Origin: Thermanaeromonas toyohensis ToBE
GTDB taxonomy: Bacteria; Bacillota; DSM-521; Neomoorellales; Neomoorellaceae
Direction of reading: 5' to 3'
DNA length: 64,000 nt
Assembly: GCF_900176005.1 (NCBI RefSeq)
Contig: NZ_LT838272.1
Span: 1,321,587-1,385,586 of the forward strand
This document shows, piece after piece, positions 5,215-63,111 of the stretch. Within the stretch, counting starts at the first letter, position 1; each line of letters starts with the position of its first letter. The notes under the pieces were generated by a model. The model had not been told where the DNA came from, did not search any database, and worked only from the letters and a program-made list of their open reading frames with translations. The translations under genes and the position numbers were made by a program.

Positions 5215-5227
5215 TTGGAGCTCCCCC

Positions 5228-6544: not shown

Positions 6545-6590
6545 TTCCGTCCTACCTCCCTAAAAAGAATCTAGACACCGTAAATATCGT

Positions 6591-6606: not shown

Positions 6607-6692
6607 GACTATTTTATCTACGGAAAAGGAGGTGGATAACGGATTCCGGGCGACAGGTTGAGTTGAGAATAAGAAATTTAGAGGTTAAAAAT

Positions 6693-6706
6693 GCGATATA
6701 TTTCGC
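6693..6706. promoter_or_regulatory. Possible enhancer (UAS) dyad for the sigma-54 activator
   Basis: GCGATATATTTCGC is an imperfect palindrome with GCGA/TCGC arms, lying about 90 bp upstream of the -24/-12 element. That is a usual distance for an upstream activator site. There is only one clear copy, and no binding specificity is known for this activator, so the call is tentative. Confidence 0.3.
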
Positions 6707-6746
6707 TATACCTAGGAAGTTTATCACTAATTTCTCACTTATTATC

Positions 6747-6775
6747 TTGCTTTATCAACATTACACAGATAGAAT
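6747..6775 (+). promoter_or_regulatory. Possible sigma-A promoter for the activator gene
   Basis: TTGCTT (6747-6752) and TAGAAT (6770-6775) are separated by 17 bp. The -10 matches five of six consensus bases; the -35 is weaker. A start site near 6782 would give a 30-base leader before the TTG at 6812. Confidence 0.4.
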
Positions 6776-6811
6776 AGTAATACGAAATACTGCGAACCAT
6801 GGTGTTGAACG

Positions 6812-11812: not shown

Positions 11813-11840
11813 AGCGCGGTCTTACCTGCGCTTTTTTATT
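11813..11840 (+). terminator. Probable rho-independent terminator
   Basis: AGCGCGGT...ACCTGCGCT forms a short, slightly bulged stem followed by TTTTTTATTTTA. It lies just before the first pilin gene. Confidence 0.5.
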
Positions 11841-11876
11841 TTAGGGCGTGCCAGGGAAGGAGGTAGGTGGTGCAAC

Positions 11877-12077
11877 ATGGGTTTTATAAGAAAGCTGGTG
11901 AACTTTTTACGCGACCAGCGGGGTTCAGCTTTTATTGAGAACGGGTTGTGGATTATAGTCGTGGTACTGCTCGTAGCTGGTGCAGGCTATGCCCTGGCCA
12001 GCCAGGGCGTAAAGCCCAAATTAGAAGCTATCCAGAATGCCATTTCCTCGGTAGTAGTTCCCAATATAGGGCAGTAA
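11877..12077 (+). CDS. Flp-type pilin
   Basis: A 66-residue pilin precursor. After a short basic leader (MGFIRKLVNFLRDQRG) comes the class III cleavage site, with S+1 and Glu at +5 in SAFIENGLWII, then a 20-residue hydrophobic helix and a short polar tail. This fits Flp/Tad pilins cut by a TadV/CpaA peptidase, which is encoded at 21141. ATG at 11877 is chosen over the upstream open frame because GAAGGAGGT precedes it. It is the first gene of the Tad locus and probably the main pilus subunit. Confidence 0.75.
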   Translation: MGFIRKLVNFLRDQRGSAFIENGLWIIVVVLLVAGAGYALASQGVKPKLEAIQNAISSVVVPNIGQ

Positions 12078-12090
12078 AGGCGTGAGGCTG

Positions 12091-12258
12091 ATGAAAAAAA
12101 TCTTACGTGACCAGCGCGGCTCCACTTTCATTGAGAATGCCTTGTGGATCATACTTTTTGTCCTCGCCATCTCGCCTTTTCTCGTCACCCTGGCTACGGC
12201 CATAGGTACCAAATTCACTGAGATGGCATCCCGGATAAATTCTATCGGCACGCCCTGA
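12091..12258 (+). CDS. Second Flp-like pilin (55 residues)
   Basis: A short gene opening 13 bp after the first pilin. The product begins MKKILRDQRGSTFIENALWI, sharing the RDQRGSxFIENxLWI signal and cleavage block with the first pilin, followed by a hydrophobic helix with a Ser-Pro kink and a short tail. It is likely a tandem-duplicated minor pilin or pseudopilin. It is shorter than 60 residues and easily missed. The shared processing motif and operon position support it as real. Confidence 0.7.
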   Translation: MKKILRDQRGSTFIENALWIILFVLAISPFLVTLATAIGTKFTEMASRINSIGTP

Positions 12259-12313
12259 TTCTAGGAGGTCGCTGGGAGATACCCTGGCGGCCTTATCTTT
12301 TGAGGTGGTGCTA

Positions 12314-12793
12314 GTGGTTTTGCGGTTTCTTAAAGACGAGCGCGGGAACAGCCTTATAGAAGCCCTCCTGGTGCTGCCACTTTTCTTAATACTGTTTTTC
12401 CTCCTTATCGAGATGGGCTTTGTGGTGTACGACTGGGCGGTGGTGAACTATGCTACTGCTTCCGCTGCAGCGAAGGCCTCCTCTGAGGGGAGGTTTTCGG
12501 AAACCATCAGGCAGGAGACGGCAGCTTATCTTAAGCAGTGGACGGTAAACGGCAAGGACCTGGGTGTAGATTTCCTGGCCGGGGCACCCTACTATTCCAG
12601 TGATACCATGGTGATCTGGGGGACACCGGCCGGTATGAACGTGCAGCGGGGGCAGGAAATAGTCGTAGGCGTGGTATATCCTGTGAGGTTTAAGACTTTC
12701 CTAGTGGGAGCCCTGGGGCAATGGCTTATCCAGGAGGAGCAACTTACCCTTAAGACCAGGGCGGTGACCACTAGCGAGGCGTTTTTTGAATAA
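12314..12793 (+). CDS. tadE: TadE-like pseudopilin
   Basis: A 159-residue TadE-family protein: short basic leader, processing site ERGNSLIEALLVLPLFL with Glu at +5, one transmembrane helix, then an exported domain of about 110 residues. GTG at 12314 is preferred because GAGGTGG lies five bases upstream, although GTG at 12305 is also possible. It follows the two pilins and is separated from the TadG-like gene at 14743 by a foreign two-gene cassette. Confidence 0.75.
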   Translation: MVLRFLKDERGNSLIEALLVLPLFLILFFLLIEMGFVVYDWAVVNYATASAAAKASSEGRFSETIRQETAAYLKQWTVNGKDLGVDFLAGAPYYSSDTMVIWGTPAGMNVQRGQEIVVGVVYPVRFKTFLVGALGQWLIQEEQLTLKTRAVTTSEAFFE

Positions 12794-12811
12794 GTGAATT
12801 CTCTTTCTTGC

Positions 12812-12857
12812 ACTTAGCAGTTTCCTGATTTTAAACTTAACAGTTTCCTGATTTTAA
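12812..12857. repeat. 23-bp tandem duplication at the left edge of the sce7726 cassette
   Basis: Two adjacent 23-bp copies (12812-12834 and 12835-12857), each containing CAGTTTCCTGATTTTAA and differing at one base. They lie between tadE and the cassette, where base composition turns AT-rich. Confidence 0.7.
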
Positions 12858-12896
12858 TATGACAGCAAATTTAATGTAATCTTTGAGGGGGTACTC

Positions 12897-12905
12897 TGGT
12901 ATAAT
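12897..12905 (+). promoter_or_regulatory. Extended -10 promoter of the sce7726 gene
   Basis: TGGTATAAT is an exact extended -10 (TGnTATAAT) about 55 bp before the ATG at 12961. No good -35 is visible, which extended -10 promoters can do without. Confidence 0.45.
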
Positions 12906-12960
12906 AATGAGTTATAATATAAACGGCAAGCAGCATTTTACCGGAACGGAGAAGGCCGTT

Positions 12961-13548
12961 ATGGCAACTAGCGACAGAGAAATCAGGCGAGAGATTTGTA
13001 ATAGTCTCATAAAGAAATATGGTAAAGACCCAGGCACGTTGATCGTACACGAGCTGAAGGTTTGCCAAGGTGAAGCTCGAATTGATATTGCTTTAGTTAA
13101 TGGTGCTTTGCATGGCTATGAGATAAAGAGCGACCGAGACACCCTGGAGAGACTACCAGGACAAATTAAAATATATAACCGGGTATTTGATACTATTACT
13201 ATCGTTACTGGCGCCAGTCATTTAAAGGAAGTTGCTACCTTAATACCCCCTTGGTGGGGAATTAAGGTAGCAACCCGGATGAATTCAGGTGAGATTGCTA
13301 TAACAGATATGCGTCAACCTGAAAGCAATACCAATGTTGATGCCTTTTCCTTGGCCCAGTTTCTCTGGCGAGATGAGCTCCTGGATTTGCTTATGCGCCA
13401 CAATGTGGGTAAAGAAATAAAGAGACTAACACGTTCTAAGCTTTGGGCCTATGTGGCAGAAAATATTTCTCTGGAAGAACTCAAAGCCCATGTTAGAGAT
13501 TGCCTTAAGAAGAGACAAGCATGGAGACCTGATGTGTTACGTACGTGA
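12961..13548 (+). CDS. sce7726 family protein (probable PD-(D/E)xK fold)
   Basis: A 195-residue protein of the sce7726 family. The segment GEARIDIALVNGALHGYEIKSD has the spacing of a PD-(D/E)xK nuclease core (D42, then E54-x-K56), suggesting a nuclease or nuclease-derived fold. ATG at 12961 is chosen over two upstream starts because GGAGAAGG lies five bases before it and the family begins there. It converges with and overlaps by 44 bp a beta family (sce7725-type) gene, its usual partner. The pair interrupts the Tad pilus operon. A defence role is suspected from the family's patchy distribution but is not established here. Confidence 0.75.
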   Translation: MATSDREIRREICNSLIKKYGKDPGTLIVHELKVCQGEARIDIALVNGALHGYEIKSDRDTLERLPGQIKIYNRVFDTITIVTGASHLKEVATLIPPWWGIKVATRMNSGEIAITDMRQPESNTNVDAFSLAQFLWRDELLDLLMRHNVGKEIKRLTRSKLWAYVAENISLEELKAHVRDCLKKRQAWRPDVLRT

Positions 13549-14542
13549 GGTGATGGTTGGTATTAATCGGTACCCAGCTTCTCATATTCCCATGGTTACA
13601 ATTGCTGGAGCCAGTACATACCCGGTTAGCACATTCATAAATCTTCATGTCGCCCCAACTAAAATCTTTACCACAGAAGATCTCGGTCATTTTAATTAGT
13701 GTTTGTGATAGGCCGTGAAATTGTGTATAGTCATAGGGGTTTCTGGGATCTCGAATGCCTCGGACAATATGCCAGGAATCTCCATAAGTGTATCTAATAG
13801 TTGGTATTATAGTAATGCCGTGTTCGTATTCCTGATCCTCGGGGTCGTCGGGCCCATAATCCCCGAAGATAGCATATGAATGTTTGTCATAAACCTCTTT
13901 CCATAGTATCCATTCTTTTCTTGGCAGTATTGACACTTTGTTTTGGGGGACATTTAAGCTTTCGGGGAAAGAAGCCCCCGCCACTATTACATTTCTAAAT
14001 TCAGAGGCCCTTACTTGTGTAAGTACGAAGCATATAAAGGCAGCCAGCGATTTAATAACCTCTTGAGGTAATCGTACTATTCCTCCTAAATCCACAATTA
14101 AATCTATAGACTGTTTATCCATCCCTGCCTCTTTACATAACCCTTCCTCAAAAGCATGTGTGTTCTCGAGGTCCTGAATACCTACCCTTAAAGCAATTCC
14201 ATTGTTAAATACATGGGTGTTTTCACGGATTAATTGAAAATACTCTGGTGGTTTGCTTGCGGATATAACAGGTATTATAGCTAGCTTTGAGCTTTCAGGT
14301 TCGGCTAATACTGCTTCTATAAAATCATTCAACTCGCCTGGAAATGTCGGATGAAAATCAAGGTAAAACTCCCGTCCTTCGCCCCAGTTTTTTATAACCT
14401 CACTGGCGAAACTATTTGGTTTAGTATCTTTCATAACATTTATTACAGGACATATATTATTTTTAACCTCTTCTGACAACCAACGCAACGCCACCTGTTC
14501 TCCTTCTTTCCACTTAAGAATGGGAACATAAAGTTTTGACAT
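13505..14542 (-). CDS. Beta family protein (sce7725-type, T4 beta-protein-like)
   Basis: A 345-residue protein of the beta family (Pfam Beta_protein), recognised from its N-terminal YVPILKWKEGEQVALRWLS and PVINVMKD segments, the internal VDLGGIVR strand and the conserved TYGDSWHIVRGIRDPRNPYD region. C-terminal cysteines (CANRVCTGSSNC, then a His) could bind metal. Its 3' end overlaps that of the sce7726 gene in convergent orientation. Family members resemble phage T4 beta protein, but their biochemical role is not settled. Codon use is AT-richer than the surrounding Tad genes, consistent with separate acquisition. Confidence 0.75.
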   Translation of the reverse strand: MSKLYVPILKWKEGEQVALRWLSEEVKNNICPVINVMKDTKPNSFASEVIKNWGEGREFYLDFHPTFPGELNDFIEAVLAEPESSKLAIIPVISASKPPEYFQLIRENTHVFNNGIALRVGIQDLENTHAFEEGLCKEAGMDKQSIDLIVDLGGIVRLPQEVIKSLAAFICFVLTQVRASEFRNVIVAGASFPESLNVPQNKVSILPRKEWILWKEVYDKHSYAIFGDYGPDDPEDQEYEHGITIIPTIRYTYGDSWHIVRGIRDPRNPYDYTQFHGLSQTLIKMTEIFCGKDFSWGDMKIYECANRVCTGSSNCNHGNMRSWVPINTNHHLTYVTHQVSMLVSS

Positions 14543-14742
14543 AGAATGTACCCCCCTGCTTGTCTTATTTTACCAAAATGTCTATACACTAAAGCCACCA
14601 TTCCCCGGGGCTTTAGGCCACTTTAGGAAAGATACGCTTAACGAGCTTAATGTTTCCGTTATGGACGGGATACACCGGAACCCAAGAGCATTGCTAACTC
14701 AAGAATAGTATAACTCCAGAGAAACGCGAAAGGAGTCGAAGG

Positions 14743-15315
14743 ATGTTGTTCGCTTTACAGGAACGAGGTAAGAATAGACTTTACCAGGCGATAAAAGATA
14801 GCAGGGGTTCGGCGGGCATATTTACACTCTTCTTTACTCTGGTAGCCCTGGCACTTACAGCTTTAGTTTTGGATATAGGCTACCTTTTCGCCGTGAAGAT
14901 CAATGCCAGGCACGCCTTGAATCTTGCCCTTAAGGCCGCAGCCGCCCAGGTGGATATGGCCGCCCTTTCCAATGCCGAAAACCCCAGGGTGGTTATTTTG
15001 ACCCAGGAAGCGGGAGAGGTGTTTTACTCCTGCTTGAGGGAAAATTTGCGGCTGGATGCCTGGAATAATCCCCTGCCTGGTTCCATTGCCGACGGTCCGG
15101 TGAGAGTAGAGTATTTCCGTGTGGTCAACGAGGTACCTTTTAGTTACCAGTACGGCGATTTCAGGGAGACAATTGTGAGGCCCTCAGTTACAGCCATCAT
15201 CAGTTTCCCGGTAAAAATAGGGCCGTGGATAAGGATGGTGCGGCCGGATTACGGGGAGGTGGTGACCATATATGTCCATTCTACGGTAGCGCCGAGGATA
15301 ATTCCCCAAAGGTGA
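14743..15315 (+). CDS. TadG-like pilus assembly protein
   Basis: A 190-residue protein with a basic leader, one N-terminal transmembrane helix (GIFTLFFTLVALALTALVLDIGYLF, about residues 27-51) followed by an ARHALNLALKAAAAQVDMAAL stretch. This is the classic start of TadG/TadE-related proteins that line the assembled Tad machine. The C-terminal 120 residues form a beta-rich exported domain without recognised motifs; the Glu at +5 of true TadE proteins is absent. An AAGGAG ribosome site precedes the ATG. It continues the Tad operon after the sce7726/beta cassette. Confidence 0.65.
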   Translation: MLFALQERGKNRLYQAIKDSRGSAGIFTLFFTLVALALTALVLDIGYLFAVKINARHALNLALKAAAAQVDMAALSNAENPRVVILTQEAGEVFYSCLRENLRLDAWNNPLPGSIADGPVRVEYFRVVNEVPFSYQYGDFRETIVRPSVTAIISFPVKIGPWIRMVRPDYGEVVTIYVHSTVAPRIIPQR

Positions 15316-52735: not shown

Positions 52736-53084
52736 TGCCGCACAAGGTAATGTGGGTTAAAAAAGGATTGGCATCCGAAGGCCTACTTATTATCAGTCTC
52801 CACTGAACTTTTAAAGAAGAATTAGACCCTGCTGCAGGATATTTTAAGGAAACCGTAGAACTGATTATGTAAAAACGCATAATAACTTGTACTTAGAAAC
52901 CTATCGCTGCAATATTACGGTTGAGCATGTACTGCCCAGGAACCCTGCCCCCAATAGTTGTGGGAGTGGAAAATTTTGTGTAAACCCCTCTGGATAAATG
53001 CTAAACTTAAGCCAGGGGGTAAGACCAATGGTACCTACCTTTACCAAAGAACAGCTACGAGCTTTTATCAGAGAGAACAACCTG

Positions 53085-53160
53085 GTAACCGCCCGGCAGC
53101 GGAGATACTGAACTATTTTGCACCTGAGGTAAGCGCCATGACTGTATGGCAAGCTCTTCT
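53085..53160 (+). pseudogene. Fragment of an ISLre2-type transposase
   Basis: The short stretch encoding NRPAAEILNYFAPEVSAMTV parallels GRAAEILGYLAPGVSAMKVW of the neighbouring full-length transposase. Flanking sequence does not continue the similarity. It is a remnant of a former insertion. Confidence 0.6.
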
Positions 53161-53229
53161 AAACGTACCTAGGCCGTGTAAAATTTCAGTAGGTAGCAGC
53201 AGGAGAATAGGGATGTAATAAAGAAAAAA

Positions 53230-54908
53230 GAGACCTCACCAGGGAAAAACACTGAAAGCAAAAGGAGCGTGAGGTCTCATGATAGATATTCGCCAAATAG
53301 TAGGGGGAGTCCTTCTATTTGCGAGTGGACTTGAGAAACTAATTGGGGAATGCAAGGATTTTTATGAGCTGGAGAAAGGGATACACGAACTAACGCAGAA
53401 GGTTTGTAGCCAGATGTTAACCTGGGCACTAGAACAGATAGATACACGGCTGATGAATGAACGTGACCGGAGCCTTTGGGAAGTGGTAGGATTTCGGGCC
53501 AAGACAGCTTTAAGCACCTTTGGGGAATTTATTTACAGGAGGCGCTTGTACAGGAACAAAGAGACTGGGGAGACCAAATTTTTCCTAGACGAAGTTTTAG
53601 GCTGGCCTTCTCGGGCGAAGGTTACTCCAAGGCTAAAGGAGCTATTTCTGAAACTGGGTAGTGAACTATCCTTTGGCCGGGCGGCGGAGATACTAGGGTA
53701 TTTAGCACCTGGGGTAAGCGCCATGAAAGTATGGCAAGCCCTTCAAGAAGTGGGGGAGGCTTTAAAGCAGGAAGGGGAAGAGAAGAGGGCAATAGTTTTT
53801 GAGAATGGTGAAGTACCTGGAGGGGAAGAAGTGGCGCCGGAGCTATACATAGAAGCCGACGGGGTGATAATACGCCTGCAGAGGGAAAAGGAGAAGCGAG
53901 GGGAAATCAAGCATATAGTAGCCTATGAAGGGAAGGAAGAAGTAAGACGGGGACGCTTTAGTTTAAAGAACAAGCTGGTGATAAGCAGCTTAAGGGATGG
54001 GGAAGGAGCCTGGGAAGAAAGCTATGCTTTAATAGGGGAAAAATGGGACTTAAGCCAGACCAAGAAGATTTACATAGGCGGAGACGGGGCGGAGTGGCCT
54101 AAACAGGGGGTAGAATACTTTCCGGGTGCTGAATATCGCTTAGACCCTTATCACCTAAGCAAGCATTTAACCGAGGCTCTCTGGCATGATGAAGAAACCT
54201 TTAGTAAAGTAGGTTTAGCGATATCCCAGGGCAACTGGGAGGAAACCCGAAGAGTACTTGAGGAAGCGGAGAAGAAGAGCCGGGGTGACAGGAAGAAAAG
54301 GATCACCAAGCTATTACAATACCTCAAAGAGAACTGGGCAGGGGTAATTAATTCACCTGGAGCGCAGCGACTAGGTGCTATAGAGGGGCAGATACAACAC
54401 AACATAGCCCGGCGGACGAAACGTCTGGGGGCCAGGTGGACGACCTCAGGTGCAGACCGCATGGCTCGTGTATTAGCCGCCAAGGCCAACGGAGAGCTAG
54501 AACAGTACATATGGCGCTGGCCAGTGGAACAACAGAAACTGAAAGAGATAGTAAAGGCTAAAGCGAAAGAAGTAGATAGGCCCAAGGTGGAGGATATAGA
54601 GAAATGGTTACGGGTATCCTTACCGGCTCTAAGGGGTCCATATGCCGACCGGATATGGGTAAAGCACGTTTTACGGGAACTTACCCGGCCAAGTCTTTGG
54701 GCTCTTGTGGGGTAGTCGGATGTTTTTGAGCTTTAGAGGGCGAAAAGGTAGAACTAAAGCTAGTATAGCCTTTCAGAGGGAAGGGCTAGGAGGGGTGTCT
54801 TATTACCTTCTCTTACAGCTTTGCCAAACCAATATCCAAGGTTTGCCATGGGTAAGATAGCCGCCATGACCTGTACGGCAAAGCTATATTATCGAACGGT
54901 GAGGTCTC
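53230..54908 (+). mobile_element. ISLre2-family insertion sequence
   Basis: Perfect 11-bp terminal inverted repeats GAGACCTCACC (53230-53240) and GGTGAGGTCTC (54898-54908) enclose one transposase gene; total about 1.68 kb. A third GTGAGGTCTC copy just before the ATG (53269-53278) pairs with the left end and could form a regulatory hairpin. Confidence 0.8.
53279..54715 (+). CDS. ISLre2-family (UPF0236) transposase
   Basis: A 478-residue transposase of the ISLre2/UPF0236 family, recognised by LYRNKETGETKFFLDEVLGW, LYIEADGVIIRLQREK, KIYIGGDGAEWPKQGVEYFP, YRLDPYHLSKHL and IEGQIQHNIARRTKRLGARW. The frame is full length and intact, so the element may still be active. AAAGGAGC precedes the ATG. Confidence 0.9.
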   Translation: MIDIRQIVGGVLLFASGLEKLIGECKDFYELEKGIHELTQKVCSQMLTWALEQIDTRLMNERDRSLWEVVGFRAKTALSTFGEFIYRRRLYRNKETGETKFFLDEVLGWPSRAKVTPRLKELFLKLGSELSFGRAAEILGYLAPGVSAMKVWQALQEVGEALKQEGEEKRAIVFENGEVPGGEEVAPELYIEADGVIIRLQREKEKRGEIKHIVAYEGKEEVRRGRFSLKNKLVISSLRDGEGAWEESYALIGEKWDLSQTKKIYIGGDGAEWPKQGVEYFPGAEYRLDPYHLSKHLTEALWHDEETFSKVGLAISQGNWEETRRVLEEAEKKSRGDRKKRITKLLQYLKENWAGVINSPGAQRLGAIEGQIQHNIARRTKRLGARWTTSGADRMARVLAAKANGELEQYIWRWPVEQQKLKEIVKAKAKEVDRPKVEDIEKWLRVSLPALRGPYADRIWVKHVLRELTRPSLWALVG

Positions 54909-54997: not shown

Positions 54998-55026
54998 GTG
55001 ACATGTCAGGGTTACAAGATTATAAT
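54998..55026 (+). promoter_or_regulatory. Promoter of the restriction operon with overlapping palindromes
   Basis: GTGACA (54998-55003) and TATAAT (55021-55026) are separated by exactly 17 bp. A perfect palindrome TGACATGTCA (54999-55008) covers the -35, and a perfect 14-bp palindrome AAGATTATAATCTT (55016-55029) covers the -10. A pair of direct repeats CTTGACACGGAC lies upstream (54945 and 54972). The transcript would begin near 55033, 25 bp before the methyltransferase start. This looks like a tightly regulated promoter. Confidence 0.75.
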
Positions 55027-55058
55027 CTTCTTAGAGAGAAAAAGAGAGGGGTGAGGGA

Positions 55059-56219
55059 GTGTTGGCTCAGGGTATGGTAGCAGGAAACCAGTCCCTGGCA
55101 CTAGGTCCTGCACCTGAGCTTGCAGTAGAAGTACCGTTGCTTTCTTTCTTCACAGGTGCTGGTTTTCTTGATCTTGGCTTTATGCAGGCGGGATTTAAAA
55201 TAATTTGGTGTAACGAGTATAATCGGTCTTTTGTAAAGGGTTATGAGTATGGTGTGGCTTCCTTGACGGGTCGCGAACCTTGCAAAGTAAATACAGAATC
55301 TATAGTTAACTTGGGTGCGAGGCAGATAGCAAAAGAAGCTTTCGGGAACACGCCACGCCCCGGGCTTTTCGGGATTATAGGTGGCCCCCCCTGCCCTGAC
55401 TTTTCCGTTGGCGGAAAAAACAGGGGAGAGAATGGCGAGCAAGGTCGGCTTTCTAAAGTGTTCGTTGATAAGATACTGGATTTGCAACCCGTGTTTTTCC
55501 TTTATGAAAATGTGCCGGGGCTAATCCGCACAGCAAAACACAGGGAGTTTCTCAGGAGGCTCCTCACACAACTCGAAACGCACTACACGTTGGATTACAA
55601 AGTCCTAAATGCCCTGGAATACGGTGTGCCGCAAGACAGGGAGCGCCTTTTTGTGGTTGGTTTCCATAAAAAGTGGTTAAAAAGGTATTTCGGGCAATTA
55701 CCTGTTTTGGGAGGCTGGTTTCCTTGGCCTGAGCCTTTATACCCGGATGCTAAGAACAAGTACCCGTGGCCTGATTTGTCACCGTTCGGTGGCGAGCCTG
55801 AAAAGCCGGAGGGCATTCCGGATGAGCTGGTTGTGGGGCCGCTGATTTGTAATACTGAGGAGATTGCCCGACTCCCTAACGGGTTAGAGGGTTTCAGGCC
55901 GTATAGTAGAAAATTCTTGACAATCCCGGAGGGTGACGTTTCCAGAAAAAGCTTTAAGCGCTTGCACAGGTGGCGGTATAGTCCCACGGCAGCTTACGGG
56001 AATAACGAAGTACACCTTCACCCGACTCTGCCCCGGAGGTTAACGGTGAGGGAAGCAATGCGGATACAAACAGTTCCTGACGGGTACGCCTTACCGCCCG
56101 ACTTGCCCCTTTCGGATAAGTTTAAAATGATAGGGAATGGTGTACCCGTCAGGCTGGCTTATGCCGTGGCGCTGTCATTTATAAAAGTTCTTAGGGGGGA
56201 GCTAAATGGATACGTTTGA
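55059..56219 (+). CDS. C5 cytosine DNA methyltransferase
   Basis: A 386-residue m5C methyltransferase. Motif I LSFFTGAGFLDLGFMQAGF binds S-adenosylmethionine; motif IV GGPPCPDFSVGG has the catalytic Cys112; motif VI FLYENVPGL; motif VIII PQDRERLFVVG; motif IX LTVREAMRIQTVPDGY; motif X MIGNGVPVRLAYAVA. The target-recognition region lies about 205-335. It modifies a cytosine in the recognition site of the restriction enzyme encoded at 61215, whose family cuts CCGG-centred sites. GTG at 55059 with a G-rich ribosome site. First gene of the operon; its end overlaps the GHKL gene by 14 bases. Confidence 0.93.
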   Translation: MLAQGMVAGNQSLALGPAPELAVEVPLLSFFTGAGFLDLGFMQAGFKIIWCNEYNRSFVKGYEYGVASLTGREPCKVNTESIVNLGARQIAKEAFGNTPRPGLFGIIGGPPCPDFSVGGKNRGENGEQGRLSKVFVDKILDLQPVFFLYENVPGLIRTAKHREFLRRLLTQLETHYTLDYKVLNALEYGVPQDRERLFVVGFHKKWLKRYFGQLPVLGGWFPWPEPLYPDAKNKYPWPDLSPFGGEPEKPEGIPDELVVGPLICNTEEIARLPNGLEGFRPYSRKFLTIPEGDVSRKSFKRLHRWRYSPTAAYGNNEVHLHPTLPRRLTVREAMRIQTVPDGYALPPDLPLSDKFKMIGNGVPVRLAYAVALSFIKVLRGELNGYV

Positions 56220-58728
56220 CCTGACTCCTGACCCGAAAGTGCTAATTGCTCTTACTCATACTCCTATGCAGCCACTTGATGCTCTGTGTGAGCTTATCGA
56301 TAACGCTATTGACTCGTTCCAGACCGCAAAATTGCAAGGAATTCCGGTCGAGCACCCCCTTGTTGTTATAGATTTACCGCGCCCTTCGGACATAAAGCAT
56401 GGTGGGGGAAGTATAAGGGTGCGCGATAACGGACCTGGCCTGACCCGCGACATGGCAGAAAAAGCTTTGCGGGCGGGTTTTTCTGGAAATAACCCGTTTG
56501 ATAGCCTGGGCCTGTTCGGAATGGGTTTTAATATATCAACCGGCAAGCTGGGGAGGGTGACCAGGTTTTTGACAGCGCGCAAGGAAGAGGACACTGCCAT
56601 AGAAGTGGTAATAGATTTGGAACAAATAAGGCAATCAGGGAGTTACAGGGTACCGTTTAGCCGCAAACAGAAAGAATTTGAGCACGGTACTCTAGTCGAA
56701 ATATCAGGCTGGTGGCCAGAGGGAAACCCTAATAGCGGGTTTGTACGGAAGCTGGTACAATACGGGATACCTAAAGTGCGGGAAGAAATCGGGAGGCGGT
56801 ACGCCACAATCTTGCGGGAGCGTGGGGTTCGCATAATTATTAACGGGGACCCTTGCGAGCCGTTCGAGCACTGCGTGTGGAGTGATTCGAGGTATGTTGA
56901 GCGGAAGGGTTACGGTAAAATCCCGGCTGTGTTCCGCTTTAATGAGGTTGTTGGCACCCAGATACGTTGTTGCTCTTGTACTGCTCTTGTTCCCGCGGGC
57001 CACAAGCAATGCCCCGCTTGTGGGTCCAGTAATCTGAGGACCATTGAGGAGAGGATTCGGGGCTGGGTAGGTATCCAGCGCTTTGACCACCCTACCGATT
57101 TCGGGATAGATTTGATCCGGAACGGTAGGGCTATCCGGATTGGCGAAAAAGCAGCTTTCTTTGAATATGTTGATGAGTTTAAGAGGACAATCAAAGATTA
57201 CCCGATAGACCAGCCTTACGGCCGGATAGTTGGTGAGGTGCACCTTGACCACGTACCAGTAGATTTCTTGAAACAAGATTTCCAGCGCACCAGCCCTGAA
57301 TGGCAGAGGGCAATGTCTTTTCTGAGAGGTGATAGCTCCCTCCAGCCAAACCAGCCGGGTGCCGACCAAAACAACAGCCCCCTGTTCAAGCTATACCAGG
57401 GTTACAGGCGTGTGAGAGTTCCCGGGAAAACAGATTTGTACATGGGGTACTGGGATCCGGAAAAGAAAAGACCTGTCCGTGTAAGCCGCGATGTTGAAAG
57501 GGAATTCTATGAAAGATTTAAGAGGAGAGAGCCAGGCTACTACGATGACACCGAATGGTGGAAGCTAGTCGAAGAAGCTGACAAGCCACCACTGGAGGAA
57601 CTTGTTGAGTGTCCGGAATGTGCGGCACAGAACCTCAAAACCAGCGAAGTATGCACTGTATGTGAAAGAGTTTTAATCGGGAAAACGTGTTTGAATCCAG
57701 AATGCAGGCAGTTTATCCCGAAGTCAGCGCCTTCGTGCCCGCACTGCGGGACCTTGCAGGAACCCCAAGTGCAAGAACCGTGGAAATGCCTTGTGTGCGG
57801 GAGGCGTAACAGCCCGGACGAAAAAACTTGCAGCAGCTGTGGCATGCAACGTGGCACTGAAAATACTTTATCTAAGGAGTACCTGCTGAAGCATTCGTAC
57901 AAGTCAGACGAACTTTCTATTCCGGGGTGCACGGTGCTGCTGGCGGATGGAAGCCGTAGCGCCCCGGTAGATGTAGATACTTACATAACGAAGGTCCCTA
58001 TATCGCCCCCGGACCAGCCGGACAAGCAGGTCCCCCTCATAGCGTTTAAGGGGGAGAAGATAGAGGTTTTTGTAGACAAAAACCACAGATTGTTCAAGAC
58101 GTTCCGGGTGCGCCCGGAACAAATGATTGCGGCGGAAGTGGCCCTTTTCTTGTATGACTATAACCGCAGGTTGTGTGCCCAGCAACAATACCAGGGCCTG
58201 CACACACTTTCTAACTTGCAGTGGGAAATTCTGGACATGAGGTGGTCCGATGCACTAGAGGATAGCGCCGAGCGGCTCCGGGAAGATATCCTGGCTTTCT
58301 TCGACGCTCTAAGGCAGCGGTTGCCCCACCTCCTTGGCGAAAGGGCGAAAGATATATTTAATGATTTGAGCGATGATCAAAAGAAGCACTTGGTTAATAA
58401 TTTGCTTGGCCGGAACATTGATATAAGCAATTTGGGTGACATGAAGCAATCGGGAGAATACCTGTACTACATAGACGAGCAGACAGTTGTTGACATATTC
58501 CATAAGTACCCGGAAGAGTTCTTTGATGGCAAGTTCTGGCAAGTTACTTATGCAGGGATTAGTGGGCTCCCTGATGTGGCGGTTGAGCAAGCCCGGAAAA
58601 GTATCGTAGCCACCTACCTCAACTGCCTGGAAGATGTTTCAAGTTTTTTGAGGTACAGGGCACCTGAAGCTATTATCACGCAGAGGGCACGGATGTCACT
58701 GGAATTTTTGCAACAAAAGGTGGTCTGA
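56206..58728 (+). CDS. MORC-like GHKL ATPase with zinc ribbons
   Basis: An 840-residue protein. The N-terminal 200 residues are a GHKL ATPase: N box CELIDNAIDSF (29-38, with E29/N33), G1 RDNGPGLT (73-80), G2 GLFGMGFN (102-109). This architecture is that of MORC/MutL-like ATPases reported in prokaryotic restriction-type operons. An inserted zinc ribbon CCSCTALVPAGHKQCPACG lies at about 250, and three to four further CxxC pairs (CPECAAQ, CTVCERV, CPHCGTL, CLVCGRRN, CSSCGMQ) lie at about 467-550. The C-terminal 280 residues are helical and unassigned. The ATPase probably clamps or loops DNA and cooperates with the helicase encoded next; the ribbons may bind DNA or the partner. All catalytic residues are present. 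Confidence 0.85.
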   Translation: MDTFDLTPDPKVLIALTHTPMQPLDALCELIDNAIDSFQTAKLQGIPVEHPLVVIDLPRPSDIKHGGGSIRVRDNGPGLTRDMAEKALRAGFSGNNPFDSLGLFGMGFNISTGKLGRVTRFLTARKEEDTAIEVVIDLEQIRQSGSYRVPFSRKQKEFEHGTLVEISGWWPEGNPNSGFVRKLVQYGIPKVREEIGRRYATILRERGVRIIINGDPCEPFEHCVWSDSRYVERKGYGKIPAVFRFNEVVGTQIRCCSCTALVPAGHKQCPACGSSNLRTIEERIRGWVGIQRFDHPTDFGIDLIRNGRAIRIGEKAAFFEYVDEFKRTIKDYPIDQPYGRIVGEVHLDHVPVDFLKQDFQRTSPEWQRAMSFLRGDSSLQPNQPGADQNNSPLFKLYQGYRRVRVPGKTDLYMGYWDPEKKRPVRVSRDVEREFYERFKRREPGYYDDTEWWKLVEEADKPPLEELVECPECAAQNLKTSEVCTVCERVLIGKTCLNPECRQFIPKSAPSCPHCGTLQEPQVQEPWKCLVCGRRNSPDEKTCSSCGMQRGTENTLSKEYLLKHSYKSDELSIPGCTVLLADGSRSAPVDVDTYITKVPISPPDQPDKQVPLIAFKGEKIEVFVDKNHRLFKTFRVRPEQMIAAEVALFLYDYNRRLCAQQQYQGLHTLSNLQWEILDMRWSDALEDSAERLREDILAFFDALRQRLPHLLGERAKDIFNDLSDDQKKHLVNNLLGRNIDISNLGDMKQSGEYLYYIDEQTVVDIFHKYPEEFFDGKFWQVTYAGISGLPDVAVEQARKSIVATYLNCLEDVSSFLRYRAPEAIITQRARMSLEFLQQKVV

Positions 58729-58733
58729 GCACC

Positions 58734-60467
58734 TTGTTTATCAGCGAAAAAACTCTCATGTCCTGTACGTGGCAGGGGTTCGTGCGTGCTGTGGCGAGGC
58801 TGCTGGTATATGAGGGGTTTACCGGTATTCGTGTTGTTGACCAGCCAGGCGACCGCGGTGCGGATCTGATAGCGCACCGCAATGGTAAGCGCTGGCTTTT
58901 CCAGATCAAGCACTGGCGTAAGAGAGCAGGGGTAGAGCTGGCCGATCAGGTGCTGAAGGCAATGACTGTTTACAGGGCCCAGGTCCCGGTAATAGTCGCG
59001 CTCAACGGGTTTGACAGGAACCTCCGCGAGCACCAGCAGGTTCTCCTCAGCCGGGGCGTGCCGCTGCAGCTGTGGGATTCCGGGGCGCTCGTGAGCCGGG
59101 CCCGGAGGCTTGCTGATGGCTGCCAGTTACCAGAGCCCCGCGAGTACCAGGAAGAAGCTATCAGGGCTATAGTGCGGGCTTACACAGAGGGGTACACGCG
59201 GAGGGCCATGATCGTGATGGCCACGGGCCTGGGTAAAACTTTTGTCGCGTGCGAGTCTATCAGGCGGCTGAACGCTTTGTCCCCTGTGAGGGTGCTTGCG
59301 ATTGCCCACACGAACGAGCTAGTTTACCAGCTTGAGCGGGCGTTCTGGCCATTTTTGAGGAAGGACCAAGAGACACTTGTTTGGAACCAGTACGAGCAAC
59401 CCGGGCCTGACGACCTTAAAAGGGCGCCTTTCGTGTTTGCCTGTTTGAACACGGTGGCTGCGTATGTTAAAAATGGGGGCGACCTGCCATATTTTGACAT
59501 TATCCTGGTTGACGAGTGCCACCACGTTGGCGCGGAAATGTACCGCACTATTCTGGACGGAACCCGCGCCGGGAAGCCCTCCGGACCGTTCCTTATCGGC
59601 TTGACGGCTACGCCGTGGCGCCCTGATGAGGTGGACCTGAGGGAGTACTTTGGCGAGCCGCTAGTATGTATTGATATAGTGACAGGGTTGAAAAAGGGAT
59701 TCCTTTCAAATGTGGATTACCGCATGTATACTGATAATATTAACTGGGATGCCCTGAGAAACCTCCACGGCTCAAAGTTTTCACCGAGGCAAATTAACCG
59801 GACGCTTTTTATAAATGAGTGGGATGACGCTGTTGTTCACGAGCTGAAGCGGGCGTGGGAAGAGCAGACGAACCCCAGGGCAATAATCTTTTGCGGTACG
59901 GTAGACCACGCTATTACTATGCGTGACAGGATAAACGCCCTGGGATTTTGCAATGCGGCAGCTATTTACTCTGCGACGGCTACGGGGAGGAGTATGCCAT
60001 CTTACGAGCGTAACCGGATCCTTTCCGACTTTCACGACGGGGTTATTGGTGCGGTATGTGCGGTTGATATATTTAATGAAGGGATTGACGTACCAGAGGT
60101 TAACATTATCGTGTTCCAGCGCGTGACGCACAGCAGGCGTATTTTCGTCCAGCAATTGGGGCGCGGCCTCCGTATCGCTCCGGGGAAGGAAAAAGTGATT
60201 GTGCTAGACTTCGTCTCTGACATCAGGAGGTTTGCTGCGGGGCTTGAATTGAAGGACAGCCTTAATGAGGGGTATGGTCCGTCCCCGGGGAACCCCGTGC
60301 GGATCAGCCTCCCGCACAAAGTGACATTCAGGCGGGTCGGTGGTGAGGATCCTGAGACAGAGTCCTTTTTGCGCCAGTGGCTGGAGGATATAGCGGCTGT
60401 AGAAAGCGCAGGAGAGGATGCAAGTATACTCAAGTTTCCGCCGGTGCTTCCGGGTGGTCGCAGGTGA
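58734..60467 (+). CDS. SF2 helicase with N-terminal Mrr-type nuclease domain
   Basis: A 577-residue protein. Residues 10-115 are an Mrr-like PD-(D/E)xK nuclease (VVDQPGDRGADLIAHRNG, then WLFQIKHW; D44 and Q57-x-K59). Residues 135-500 are a superfamily II helicase: Walker A MATGLGKT (162-169), DEAH-type box VDECHH (259-264), motif III LTATPW, and motif VI QQLGRGLRIAPGK. TTG at 58734 lies five bases after the GHKL stop; an ATG at 58758 would keep the nuclease domain nearly intact. The combination is that of a type I/III-like DNA translocase with its own nuclease. The last bases overlap the next gene by GTGA. Confidence 0.9.
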   Translation: MFISEKTLMSCTWQGFVRAVARLLVYEGFTGIRVVDQPGDRGADLIAHRNGKRWLFQIKHWRKRAGVELADQVLKAMTVYRAQVPVIVALNGFDRNLREHQQVLLSRGVPLQLWDSGALVSRARRLADGCQLPEPREYQEEAIRAIVRAYTEGYTRRAMIVMATGLGKTFVACESIRRLNALSPVRVLAIAHTNELVYQLERAFWPFLRKDQETLVWNQYEQPGPDDLKRAPFVFACLNTVAAYVKNGGDLPYFDIILVDECHHVGAEMYRTILDGTRAGKPSGPFLIGLTATPWRPDEVDLREYFGEPLVCIDIVTGLKKGFLSNVDYRMYTDNINWDALRNLHGSKFSPRQINRTLFINEWDDAVVHELKRAWEEQTNPRAIIFCGTVDHAITMRDRINALGFCNAAAIYSATATGRSMPSYERNRILSDFHDGVIGAVCAVDIFNEGIDVPEVNIIVFQRVTHSRRIFVQQLGRGLRIAPGKEKVIVLDFVSDIRRFAAGLELKDSLNEGYGPSPGNPVRISLPHKVTFRRVGGEDPETESFLRQWLEDIAAVESAGEDASILKFPPVLPGGRR

Positions 60468-61195
60468 AGTTCAGCCAGGTAATTGATGATATCAAGTGCC
60501 TTGTGGGCATGAAGCTTAACAGCATCAGGCCGGGTGCCGAAATAACTATCATTGAGGTTGATGAAGAACACGGCAGGATACTGGTACAGGCAAAATCTGG
60601 CGAAGTAAAGTCACGCCCGTTCCAAGAAATAAGGCGCATATGGGATGAGCTATGCAAGAAGCCAGCCGTACATGTTGAATCGGTCCTTTACGGTTCCGGC
60701 TCCAGCCGCAACCAGCCAGAGACAATCCTGGCAAACCTCCCGTATATCGAGTGGTTCAGGTACAACAAGAAAAAGCACATCGCCTTTGTGGGGCAGGCAA
60801 CACACCCTCCGGGTACGCTAAAAGAAATGGACCCTGTTCAAGCTGAAAAAATCAAAGCAAAATTGAGGGGAGCTGCGTCACCAGTGGTAACATCAGAGGT
60901 AGTGGTCGTGACCAGCGACGTGCGTGGTGTGTCGCAAGCGCTCGAGAGTGTTGCTGGCACACGCGCAGAGCCACTGGCCCCGGGGGTATACAAGCATGAG
61001 TGTGGTGGCACGCGGGTTTTCCTGGTGGCTGGCAGTTCCCTGCCGGGAGTAAAGGAGGGAACTTATGCTGTTATCAGAAGTCCCCACAAGCCGGAGGGGG
61101 GCGTAGTTGTCCAGCTAGGCGGGCGTACGTTCCATGTGGTTTGCGCCGGAGGCCTCTACCTGATGGTAGAGGCGGGTAAGATGAGACTGGAGTAA
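60464..61195 (+). CDS. Unknown protein of the restriction operon
   Basis: A 243-residue protein starting at GTG 60464, which overlaps the helicase stop; the longer open frame inside the helicase gene is not supported. Residues 1-75 form a small domain (FSQVIDDIKCLVGMKLNSIR, then EITIIEVDEEHGRILVQAKS, then SRPFQEIRRIWDELCKKPAV) resembling a DNA-binding or EVE/PUA-like beta domain. Next comes a helix-rich middle (ETILANLPYIEWFRYNKKKH). The C-terminal part, after LAPGVYKHECGGTRVFLVAG, has a second beta-rich repeat. No nuclease or ATPase motif seen. A specificity or modified-base recognition role is a guess from position. Confidence 0.6.
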   Translation: MKFSQVIDDIKCLVGMKLNSIRPGAEITIIEVDEEHGRILVQAKSGEVKSRPFQEIRRIWDELCKKPAVHVESVLYGSGSSRNQPETILANLPYIEWFRYNKKKHIAFVGQATHPPGTLKEMDPVQAEKIKAKLRGAASPVVTSEVVVVTSDVRGVSQALESVAGTRAEPLAPGVYKHECGGTRVFLVAGSSLPGVKEGTYAVIRSPHKPEGGVVVQLGGRTFHVVCAGGLYLMVEAGKMRLE

Positions 61196-61214
61196 TGGAA
61201 TAGGGGGGTAGGGG

Positions 61215-62198
61215 GTGAATTGTAAGAACTGCACTACTCCCAGGTGTCTAAGTGTTGAAAAAGGTAAAGATGGCAAGCAGAGAGTAAAATTGTCCAGTAT
61301 TGAGAGTTCAAAGTGCCTCTTGAAATACCTGTCACAAAAACCCCTTAGCGAATTGGTTGGTAAGGTGACCTCTGATTTATTGGACGAATTACAGAACGGG
61401 ATTAAAAAGGCTTCCCAAAAACACTACGGTATAGAGCCGAGAGACCAGTCCTTTAATAACGTCAGGGGTGCTTGGTTTGAGAAAGTTGTGAGTTTTTGGC
61501 TGTGGTCCAGGTGGTATGAATACTGCAAAAATATCGGGGGTATACCCTACTTTGTACTAAAGTTACCAGATGCCGCTAAGTTTAATTTTGTAAAGATTTT
61601 TTGCTCTGAAGAAGAAGAGAAGGTAATTGGAAGCCTGAAAAAACACTTAGATAATCACGGGGTTGCTCTGGAGACATCTAACCCTGACTTTGTCGTTGTT
61701 ACATTAAAAGCCGGAGAACATAAAAGCTGTCCGGTAAAGCATAAGGATTTTTCTCTTGAGAACCTTGGGCGCCTAGAGGACTTATATAGGAATTTTGAGT
61801 ACCTGGAGAATTTATACAGGGGCTTTAGAAACAAGTGCAAGTATACAGATGTAATATGCGCAATTGGTGTTAAAGATAGTTTGCGGCCGGACAGGCGGCT
61901 GCAGCTCGTTTACGAGGGTAATATCTTTAAAGCTGTAATGCTCCATTTCAAAACACGCTTCTGGGATTATAGCTATGAGATACCACCATTTTATGCTATT
62001 GTTAATGGCAAAAAAGCCCCTGGCAAGAAGGACGCAAGAGCCCTTATTACAGCAACAACCAGCACCCTGGTAGACATAAGGCTCAGGCCGGAGCGCGCGG
62101 TGGATGAGACATTTTACGCGGGCAGGCTTGGAGATATAGATCAGGTTTTCTCGAAGATTAAAGAAAGGCTAGAATCACTGCAAAAAAACAGGGTGTGA
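61215..62198 (+). CDS. Cfr10I/Bse634I-like type II restriction endonuclease
   Basis: A 327-residue protein. The decisive motif is SNPDFVVV (D158) followed 62 residues later by K220 in VKDSLRPDRRLQLVYEGN, with Glu at 234, giving the PD-Xn-K-X13-E active-site order of Cfr10I, Bse634I and relatives. The SLRPDRR block is a family hallmark that contacts the CCGG core. The spacing between PD and K is about 10 longer than the usual range. The N terminus has an odd CKNC-CTTPRC cysteine cluster. Family enzymes are tetramers cutting RCCGGY-type sites, which suits a C5 methyltransferase partner. GTG at 61215, 19 bp after the unknown protein. Confidence 0.75.
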   Translation: MNCKNCTTPRCLSVEKGKDGKQRVKLSSIESSKCLLKYLSQKPLSELVGKVTSDLLDELQNGIKKASQKHYGIEPRDQSFNNVRGAWFEKVVSFWLWSRWYEYCKNIGGIPYFVLKLPDAAKFNFVKIFCSEEEEKVIGSLKKHLDNHGVALETSNPDFVVVTLKAGEHKSCPVKHKDFSLENLGRLEDLYRNFEYLENLYRGFRNKCKYTDVICAIGVKDSLRPDRRLQLVYEGNIFKAVMLHFKTRFWDYSYEIPPFYAIVNGKKAPGKKDARALITATTSTLVDIRLRPERAVDETFYAGRLGDIDQVFSKIKERLESLQKNRV

Positions 62199-62202
62199 GA
62201 GC

Positions 62203-63111
62203 ATGACGGAAGTTGAATTTCAGTACCTAGTAATCCGGTGGTTCGAGTCAAACGGGCGAGCGTTCCCGTGGCGGCGAGGAGGCATTGAGCCAGCAGTTGG
62301 CCTGCTTACGGAGTTATTGCTACGGAAAACAACGGCTGAGCAAGTCAGTAAAGCCTATACTGAGATAATCGCTTATGTGAAGGAGTTTTTATCTTCAGGG
62401 CAGAACCGTGAAGAGCTTTACAGGGCACTAAAGCCCCTTGGCCTGCAGCACCAGCGGATGGTTGCTATAGATGAAATCGCAAAGTATTTGCGTACCAATT
62501 ATAGTGGCAAATTACCGCAGGACCTGGGCCAGCTGTTAGAAATCCCTCATATAGGGCCATACATAGCTAACGCGACGCGGTGTTTTTACCTTGGTCAGCC
62601 AGCACCTATTGTTGATGCTAATATAGCCAGGTTACTGGGCAGGTTTTTCGGAGTTCCAGGTAATACCTCAAACCCGGTGAGGACAAGGGCTTACTGGTTG
62701 ATAGCTTCTGCTTTGCTGCCAAAACAATGCGTGAAAGAGTACAACTGGGGCTTGCTGGATTTGGGGGCTCTTATGTGTACCCCGCAGCAACCGGATTGTG
62801 TTGCTTGCCCTCTAAATGCAGGCTGCTCTTATGCAGGTCACTCTTCCGTGTGGCAAGGCTTAAGTGCTATGCAGAGGTTGGAGCTGTGTAAATTACAGTG
62901 GGACTTGGCACAAGTCCCCTTACGGCTTGCTGAATTAGTAGGGTTAGGTAGCGTCCCCAAAGCCAAAAGTATTTTGGGGTTAATCGCGAAATATACCCGG
63001 GCCCCTATAACTAGTGGGGCTATTTCTGAGTTGGATATGAGGCGGTTTTCAGTACAACATTACTGTGGCGCTAGCTTGGAAGGCAAGATAGCCTGGGTGT
63101 ACGGAGATTGA
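62203..63111 (+). CDS. MIG-type T:G mismatch DNA glycosylase (HhH-GPD, 4Fe-4S)
   Basis: A 302-residue HhH-GPD glycosylase. The hairpin-helix-hairpin is LLEIPHIGPYIANATRCF (111-128), with Tyr120 where MutY has Ser and the MIG/TDG-like branch has Tyr. The catalytic Asp138 is in IVDANIARLL, the VDAN form typical of Mig.MthI rather than MutY's LDGN. The 4Fe-4S cluster is CTPQQPDCVACPLNAGC with Cx6Cx2Cx5C spacing (192, 199, 202, 208). Such enzymes remove T opposite G formed when 5-methylcytosine deaminates, a growing problem at high temperature. It is encoded four bases after the restriction enzyme, so repair is tied to the methyltransferase. The C-terminal 90 residues are unassigned. Confidence 0.82.
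   Translation: MTEVEFQYLVIRWFESNGRAFPWRRGGIEPAVGLLTELLLRKTTAEQVSKAYTEIIAYVKEFLSSGQNREELYRALKPLGLQHQRMVAIDEIAKYLRTNYSGKLPQDLGQLLEIPHIGPYIANATRCFYLGQPAPIVDANIARLLGRFFGVPGNTSNPVRTRAYWLIASALLPKQCVKEYNWGLLDLGALMCTPQQPDCVACPLNAGCSYAGHSSVWQGLSAMQRLELCKLQWDLAQVPLRLAELVGLGSVPKAKSILGLIAKYTRAPITSGAISELDMRRFSVQHYCGASLEGKIAWVYGD

What the first reader, a model, noticed from the sequence alone, without database searches (positions are those of the whole stretch)
54998..63111. Six-gene restriction operon joining a type II core, a MORC/helicase module and a T:G repair enzyme
In one tight transcription unit the sequence shows a C5 methyltransferase, a MORC-like GHKL ATPase with five CxxC ribbons, an Mrr-nuclease/SF2 helicase, an unknown protein, a Cfr10I-like endonuclease and a MIG-type glycosylase. 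MORC/MutL-type ATPases with SF2 helicases have been described in prokaryotic restriction-like operons, and MIG beside a C5 methyltransferase is known from Methanothermobacter. I know of no described system that has all of them in one operon with a separate Cfr10I-type enzyme. It would have two independent ways to cut DNA: a simple type II enzyme and an ATP-driven nuclease-helicase-clamp. One idea is that the MORC/helicase arm acts on DNA the type II arm cannot cut, such as phage DNA carrying modified cytosine.
Basis: partly seen in the sequence, partly recalled or inferred. Interest (0 to 1): 0.87.

Follow-up and report, generated by a model that had tools for sequence, protein, structure and literature searches.

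The report
MORC-helicase restriction operon sharing one methylase
A six-gene bacterial defence operon pairs an ordinary DNA-cutting enzyme with a second, ATP-driven cutting machine containing a bacterial relative of the eukaryotic MORC proteins, and comparison with about 100 related loci suggests that both read the same DNA site and are held off by the same methyl mark.

Summary
The six genes are real, intact and tightly packed behind a good promoter. The 'chance stacking' reading fails. In 48 fully flanked relatives the MORC ATPase lies with the Mrr-helicase in 47, with a C5 methylase in 48 and with a T:G repair enzyme (Vsr or MIG) in 37. A viral-collection contig (L140) carries the same six gene families. 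Its sister L141 has a 93%-identical core, but its Cfr10I-type nuclease is replaced by another type II nuclease.

The accessory 'unknown' protein tracks the methylase's target type. U243 goes with methylases carrying the Cfr10I/BsrFI-type recognition region (11 of 12 loci; 0 of 59 in five other classes). Its N-domain is homologous to the N-domain of the nuclease that replaces Cfr10I.

Best reading: one methylase (predicted site RCCGGY) licenses host DNA against two arms reading the same site, a two-site type II enzyme and an ATP-dependent MORC/Mrr-helicase guided by U243. MIG repairs deaminated 5mC. Complex formation and ATP-dependent cutting are inferred, not shown.

MORC + helicase + cytosine methylase + Vsr operons were described by Iyer et al. 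2008, so this is a new variant of a known kind. The modified-cytosine (type IV-like) idea is disfavoured.

The parts
54998..55026 (+). predicted sigma-70-type promoter (GTGACA-17-TATAAT) of the operon
   Evidence: 11/12 consensus match, best of 13 in the region, which has a background of about 7 by shuffling
55059..56219 (+). C5-cytosine DNA methyltransferase; recognition region of the Cfr10I/BsrFI-associated type (predicted site RCCGGY)
   Evidence: PF00145 2e-49; 46% identical to the methylase beside BsrFI on pBsrF30 with shared signature AYGNNEVHLHP; only PF00145 match in the 3.33-Mb genome
56206..58728 (+). prokaryotic MORC: GHKL ATPase + S5 domain + zinc ribbons
   Evidence: HATPase_c_3 5e-8, zinc-ribbon hits; MORC motif GhXhhpXXRhl as GIDLIRNGRAI at aa 300-310, found in 86 of 89 homologues; the profile's only PDB hits are MORC3/MORC4
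58734..60467 (+). Mrr-type nuclease domain fused to SF2 helicase
   Evidence: Mrr_cat 2e-14, ResIII 9e-29, Helicase_C 6e-13; D44, Q57, K59 conserved 76-77/77
60464..61195 (+). U243: predicted site-reading subunit (barrel + winged-helix-like N-domain, unknown C-domain)
   Evidence: no Pfam hit; AF2 pLDDT 87; N-domain homologous to the N-domain of type II REase family R362/PDLC03534 (hhalign prob 96, E 3e-9; PADLOC 2.6e-7 for the L140 orthologue)
61215..62198 (+). Cfr10I/Bse634I-family type II restriction endonuclease
   Evidence: PF07832 2e-47; best PDB hit Bse634I 1KNV 4e-40 with active-site and recognition motif conserved
62203..63111 (+). MIG-type (MutY/EndoIII superfamily) T:G mismatch glycosylase with 4Fe-4S motif
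   Evidence: HhH-GPD 2e-7; best PDB hit is Mig.Mth 1KEA 6e-37, with the A50 and Y126 equivalents kept and MutY Q182 replaced by W

Best explanation
This is a restriction-modification island in which one C5 methylase (predicted target RCCGGY) protects host DNA from two nuclease arms that read the same unmethylated site. Arm 1 is a Cfr10I/Bse634I-type type II enzyme, a family known to need two sites in synapsis. Arm 2 is an ATP-dependent assembly: U243 recognises the site, the MORC ATPase closes on DNA as a clamp or loop-trap, and the Mrr-SF2 helicase translocates and cuts. The MIG glycosylase removes T from T:G mispairs made when 5mC at protected sites deaminates, a job Vsr does in most relatives. 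Shown by sequence: gene content, intact motifs, recurrence, matching of U243 with the methylase's recognition type, and exchange of the type II nuclease on a constant core. Inferred: the exact site, U243 as recognition subunit, assembly into one complex, ATP-driven cleavage, and anti-phage function.
For: MORC and helicase genes co-diverge (identity correlation 0.83; 0 of 300 permutations) and both correlate with the methylase. Of 48 fully flanked loci, the methylase is present in 48, the helicase in 47 and Vsr/MIG in 37. The Mrr active site is conserved in 76-77 of 77, so arm 2 is kept nuclease-competent although a type II enzyme is often next door. Accessory-protein classes have non-overlapping nuclease families: U243 with Cfr10I or R362; U195 with NaeI or NgoMIV; U175 with Eco29kI/GIY; no accessory protein with MspI or MvaI/BcnI. 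NaeI and NgoMIV, which lie on different branches of the REase fold (PMC4081073) but share a target, are interleaved on one methylase clade. The methylase recognition signature shared with BsrFI-type enzymes is in 11/12 U243 loci and 0/59 methylase-bearing loci of the other five classes, also where no Cfr10I gene is seen. L140 and L141 share a 93%-identical methylase-MORC-helicase-U243 core, while the nuclease differs completely. The U243 N-domain is homologous to the N-domain of that replacement nuclease family, and that N-domain is the part not shared with other REases carrying the same nuclease domain. The window methylase is the only C5 methylase in the genome. MIG.
Against: I found no biochemistry for any of these proteins. 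The R362 copy in L141 appears to have lost its ExE motif, so the swap does not by itself prove that both nucleases share a site. L017 has Cfr10I + U243 with a methylase lacking the signature. The window's own U243 matches the R362 profile only weakly (E 0.04); the link rests on family-level comparison. U175, the equivalent-slot protein in other classes, looks unlike U243 in fold, so slot 3 need not have one function. In 15 of 48 loci no type II nuclease was recognised.
Confidence: 0.5

Rival explanations
1. Booster model: the MORC/helicase/U243 set has no independent restriction role but assists the type II enzyme, looping DNA to bring two sites together (needed by Cfr10I, NgoMIV and Bse634I) and degrading the cut ends.
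For: A recognised type II enzyme is nearby in 31 of 48 loci. Cfr10I/Bse634I/NgoMIV need two sites (PMC4652773). MORCs compact or entrap DNA (PMC12216690; PMC8277788 abstract). Iyer et al. proposed looping between recognition and cleavage sites.
Against: Eco29kI cuts one site at a time and BcnI is a monomer (PMC4081073), yet both families accompany the module. The strictly conserved Mrr active site argues for a nuclease role of its own. In L011/L014 the methylase-MORC-helicase-U243 block has no recognised type II nuclease and sits next to Druantia genes.
Confidence: 0.25
2. Type IV-like model: the MORC arm attacks DNA that the type II arm cannot cut, such as phage DNA with modified cytosine.
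For: The helicase resembles PADLOC type IV models among others. Mrr nuclease domains are common in type IV enzymes (general knowledge).
Against: It is always beside a C5 methylase that would create 5mC in its own genome (48/48). No SRA/EVE/PUA-like hit was found for U243. The U243 N-domain resembles a type II REase N-domain. Accessory type follows the methylase target class.
Confidence: 0.08
3. Loose stacking: a mobile four-gene unit (methylase-MORC-helicase-U243) that happens to sit in defence islands with unrelated type II nucleases and repair genes.
For: The window's nearest methylase-clade relatives (L011, L012, L014-L016, L033, L034, L054) lack an adjacent Cfr10I gene. Transposase upstream and serine recombinase downstream.
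Against: Cfr10I-type genes occur in 4 of 12 U243 loci and none of the others. The exact six-family set recurs in L140. MIG also lies beside the closest MORC relative, L013. T:G repair genes occur in 37/48 loci.
Confidence: 0.1
4. Maintenance/repair model: the MORC-helicase pair works like MutL with a helicase in repairing deaminated 5mC sites together with MIG/Vsr, rather than in restriction.
For: MORC is a MutL relative. Vsr or MIG is present in 37/48 loci. Iyer et al. allow recruitment to repair for some relatives.
Against: 11 of 48 loci have no Vsr/MIG. The helicase has an Mrr nuclease domain, the slot-3 protein is target-matched, and the type II nuclease is exchanged on a constant core.
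Confidence: 0.07

Closest known systems
Prokaryotic MORC restriction-modification operons, type 1 of Iyer, Abhiman & Aravind 2008 (PMC2292703)
   Same: MORC GHKL-S5 ATPase, SF2 helicase fused to an N-terminal RE-fold nuclease, cytosine methylase, often Vsr-type endonuclease
   Different: Here a complete separate Cfr10I-type enzyme, a MIG glycosylase in place of Vsr, and the U243 accessory protein matched to the methylase target class; the paper text read here does not describe these
Cfr10I / Bse634I / BsrFI type IIF R-M systems
   Same: Type II nuclease with the same catalytic and recognition motifs, and a methylase with the same recognition-region signature
   Different: The three plasmid Cfr10I-family systems examined are plain nuclease + methylase pairs without MORC, helicase or T:G repair genes
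Mig.MthI of Methanothermobacter (1KEA)
   Same: Closest solved relative of the glycosylase; T:G repair enzyme linked to C5 methylation
   Different: Extra ~90-residue C-terminal part, and Trp where Mig has Leu187
CglI / NgoAVII ATP-dependent R-M (PMC4267653)
   Same: C5 methylase plus separate nuclease and SF2 helicase/ATPase, GC-rich site, ATP-dependent cleavage
   Different: PLD nuclease with B3 domain and Z1-helicase; no MORC, no Mrr domain, no second type II nuclease
Druantia type II / PbeABCD
   Same: The methylase resembles DruM2 and the helicase resembles PbeA; the MORC block lies beside Druantia genes in L011
   Different: No DruE/DruF in the window; PbeC is a CxC ABC ATPase, not a MORC

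Membership tests
MORC family (Iyer et al. definition) | GHKL ATP-binding motifs plus S5 domain with GhXhhpXXRhl | tested here: met
   ELIDNAID, DNGPG, GLFGMGF present; GIDLIRNGRAI at aa 300-310; motif in 86/89 homologues
MORC family (Iyer et al. definition) | closest solved relatives are eukaryotic MORCs | tested here: met
   only PDB profile hits are MORC3 and MORC4, E 6e-8 to 3e-7
MORC R-M operon type 1 | SF2 helicase fused to RE-fold nuclease, with cytosine methylase | tested here: met
   Mrr_cat + ResIII + Helicase_C in one protein; methylase overlaps the MORC gene
MORC R-M operon type 1 | helicase of the Rad25-like family | tested here: inconclusive
   best NCBIfam matches are EcoAI HsdR-like and RadD; rad25 weaker at 1e-9, all below cut-off
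Cfr10I/Bse634I endonucleases | family HMM and intact catalytic/recognition residues | tested here: met
   PF07832 2e-47; TSNPD and SLRPDRR aligned to 1KNV
Cfr10I/Bse634I endonucleases | cleavage of RCCGGY as a tetramer | not testable with these tools
   needs enzyme assay; methylase similarity to the BsrFI-linked methylase is supportive only
MIG T:G glycosylases | T:G-specific pocket: Ala50, Tyr126, Leu187 rather than MutY Val45/Ser120/Gln182 | tested here: inconclusive
   Ala and Tyr kept, Leu187 is Trp, Gln182 absent
Type IV (modified-base) restriction | modified-base reader domain (SRA, EVE/PUA or similar) | tested here: not met
   no Pfam hit; AF2 model with no such PDB fold among the listed hits
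CglI/NgoAVII class | PLD nuclease with B3 domain and Z1-helicase | tested here: not met
   Mrr nuclease and no Z1 domain in Pfam scan
Druantia | DruE helicase | tested here: not met
   no DruE among the six proteins
Anti-phage defence system | reduces phage or plasmid entry | not testable with these tools
   needs challenge experiment

The most novel reading that the evidence does not exclude
A class of restriction system in which a MORC clamp and an Mrr-helicase are steered to a specific unmethylated site by a stand-alone recognition subunit related to a type II nuclease's recognition domain. It shares one methylase with an exchangeable type II nuclease of the same site, so the system keeps its specificity while swapping cutters.
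Probability: 0.42. Interest if true: 0.8.

Novelty: new variant of a known kind. Interest (0 to 1): 0.62.

Why it matters
Prokaryotic MORCs are the proposed source of the eukaryotic MORC proteins, but I found no biochemical study of one, and how they read DNA is unknown. This operon and its relatives give a concrete, testable answer: a matched accessory protein reads the same site as the methylase. The exchange of type II nucleases of unrelated folds on a constant methylase-MORC-helicase core is also a natural experiment on how R-M systems keep specificity while changing their cutting enzyme. It offers a way to predict nuclease targets from the accessory protein.

Tried and rejected
Homology between slot-3 proteins U243, U195 and U175: no profile-profile match. 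AF2/Foldseek on U175 suggests only a weak PD-(D/E)xK-like resemblance, so one common fold for slot 3 was dropped.

PDB sequence search for U243: nothing significant. Foldseek for U243: only partial Tudor-like barrel and ArsR-type winged-helix matches, E > 0.01, not used as evidence of function.

Site avoidance: RCCGGY as a whole is not depleted; GCCGGC is (0.71 of expected against 0.95 and 1.00 in relatives), but other palindromes are lower, so this was not used.

PbeABCD and VcSduA/Shedu as relatives: rejected on domain content. My first regex for the Mrr active site failed (15/77); the alignment replaced it. U243 in 398 genomes of the same phylum: found only in this genome, so the system is rare.
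Full report
WHAT IS THERE. Six + strand genes fill 55059-63111. In order they are: a C5 methylase (PF00145, 2e-49); an 840-residue GHKL ATPase with zinc ribbons; an Mrr nuclease fused to an SF2 helicase (Mrr_cat 2e-14, ResIII 9e-29); a 243-residue protein without Pfam hit (U243); a Cfr10I/Bse634I-family nuclease (2e-47); and a MutY/EndoIII-superfamily glycosylase. The methylase and MORC genes overlap by 14 nt, helicase and U243 by 4 nt, and the other gaps are at most 19 nt. An 11/12 promoter match sits at 54998-55026. A UPF0236 transposase lies just upstream, and a large serine recombinase lies about 3.5 kb downstream of the last gene.

IDENTITIES. The ATPase is a MORC by the published criterion. 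It has the GHKL motifs and the S5 motif GhXhhpXXRhl (GIDLIRNGRAI, aa 300-310), which 86 of 89 homologues keep, and the profile's only PDB hits are MORC3 and MORC4. The Mrr active site (D44, Q57, K59) is conserved in 76-77 of 77 relatives. The nuclease aligns with Bse634I through its active site and SLRPDRR recognition motif. The glycosylase's best solved relative is Mig.Mth (1KEA, 6e-37). It keeps the equivalents of Ala50 and Tyr126 and lacks MutY's Gln182, although Leu187 is Trp.

IS IT A CHANCE STACK? A scan of 84,980 species genomes gave 289 relatives of the MORC, of which the best 80 loci were kept. Of 48 loci with at least 6 kb on both sides, 47 have the helicase, 48 a C5 methylase, 37 a Vsr or MIG gene, and 31 a recognised type II nuclease. 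MORC and helicase distances correlate at 0.83, and MORC and methylase at 0.24 (0.48 within the zinc-ribbon subfamily); 0 of 300 permutations reach these values, but the test is not corrected for phylogeny. A viral-collection contig, L140, encodes methylase-MORC-helicase-U243-MIG-Cfr10I, the same six families with the last two swapped. The closest MORC relative, L013, has MIG and a methylase divergently beside MORC and helicase. By contrast, three Cfr10I-type systems on plasmids are plain nuclease-methylase pairs.

THE NUCLEASES. Those beside the MORC module belong to several families: Cfr10I, NgoMIV, NaeI, MspI, Eco29kI/GIY-YIG, MvaI/BcnI and the REase model PDLC03534 ('R362'). The known prototypes all cut CC(N0-2)GG-type sites: RCCGGY, GCCGGC, CCGCGG, CCSGG, and GCCGGC for NaeI, CCGG for MspI and CCWGG for MvaI (own knowledge). 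No general survey of C5-type systems was made as a control, so this is a pattern, not a statistic. NaeI and NgoMIV belong to different branches of the nuclease fold but share a target; here they are interleaved on one methylase clade. Nuclease families do not overlap between accessory-protein classes.

WHAT U243 DOES. Window-type loci carry methylases with a recognition-region signature (AYGNNEVHLHP) shared with the methylases next to Cfr10I-type nucleases on plasmids, including the one beside BsrFI on pBsrF30 (46% identical to the window's). The signature is in 11 of 12 U243 loci and in none of the 59 methylase-bearing loci of the U175, U195, X375, MspI and MvaI/BcnI classes. It is present even where no Cfr10I gene is visible. 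So U243 tracks the target, not the cutter. L140 and L141 share 93% nucleotide identity over 6.7 kb spanning methylase, MORC, helicase and U243. Past U243, L140 has a Cfr10I-type nuclease and L141 an R362-type one. The first ~100 residues of U243 are homologous to the N-domain of R362 (hhalign probability 96%, E 3e-9; PADLOC 2.6e-7 for the L140 protein). R362's nuclease domain is shared with 169 plasmid records, but in the matches listed the N-domain is not. A predicted model of U243 (pLDDT 87) shows a small barrel and a winged-helix-like unit carrying the strongly conserved RNQPET segment; Foldseek gives no significant whole-protein match. The simplest reading is that U243 is a free-standing site reader for the MORC arm. 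Caveats: L141's R362 seems to have lost its ExE motif, L017 breaks the methylase rule, and the window's own U243 matches R362 only weakly (E 0.04).

HOW IT MOST LIKELY WORKS. The methylase is the only C5 methylase in the 3.33-Mb genome, so it presumably protects against the Cfr10I-type nuclease, most likely at RCCGGY. Unmethylated incoming DNA then faces a two-site type II enzyme and, by inference, a U243-guided MORC/Mrr-helicase that clamps, translocates and cuts using ATP. MORC clamp and compaction behaviour is known for eukaryotic relatives (PMC12216690). MIG repairs T:G pairs from deaminated 5mC. The booster model, with MORC looping DNA for two-site enzymes, is the main rival. It is weakened by the association with Eco29kI and BcnI families, which do not need two sites, and by L011/L014, where the block sits with Druantia genes and no recognised type II nuclease.

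AGAINST WHAT IS KNOWN. Iyer et al. 2008 described MORCs with SF2 helicases, nuclease domains, cytosine methylases and Vsr. In the paper library searched I found no experimental work on such an operon, but preprints and subscription journals are mostly not held. The additions here are the full type II enzyme plus MIG, the target-matched accessory protein with its link to a nuclease domain, and the exchange of nucleases on a constant core. That makes it a new variant of a known kind.

LIMITS. The locus sample was drawn by MORC similarity and capped at 80. Nuclease assignment is by homology and 15 of 48 loci had none. The viral-collection contigs may be host islands. No structure of a complex was predicted.

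Noticed in passing
L011:7505-22509, L014:7501-22510: In Paenibacillus the methylase-MORC-helicase-U243 block is nested between a second, BsrFI-like methylase and Druantia DruF/DruE genes; the window methylase's best PADLOC model is also DruM2.
   Followed up: partly
L018, L020, L022, L023, L035 (for example L018:14241-15374): A ~375-residue family (no Pfam or PADLOC hit for the L018 member) directly follows the helicase and precedes two C5 methylases; a candidate unrecognised type II nuclease.
   Followed up: no
L004, L005, L038-L039, L041, L043, L053, L055-L056, L058-L059, L063-L067 and others: A PIN_8-domain (PF18476) gene next to the MORC module in 19 of 48 fully flanked loci.
   Followed up: no
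L064:14010-14540 (U175 family): The alphaproteobacterial slot-3 protein folds with high confidence (pLDDT 92) and weakly resembles PD-(D/E)xK proteins, without an obvious catalytic motif.
   Followed up: partly
L034:8282-8677; L141:13725-14123 (minus strand): Free-standing copies of the U243/R362 N-domain (~131 aa), suggesting that it is a mobile module.
   Followed up: partly
window 52958-53218 and 53279-54715: An intact UPF0236-type transposase next to what looks like a remnant of a second copy, immediately upstream of the operon.
   Followed up: no
sampled 454 kb of the host genome: GCCGGC occurs at 0.71 of Markov expectation (12 against 34 in the window) but 0.95 and 1.00 in two family members.
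   Followed up: partly
L010:2649-3506, 5197-6897, 11829-13462, 13676-15190: Downstream mobile-looking region: ImmA/IrrE-like peptidases, a large serine recombinase and a TnpB-like protein (recognised by eye, not scanned).
   Followed up: no
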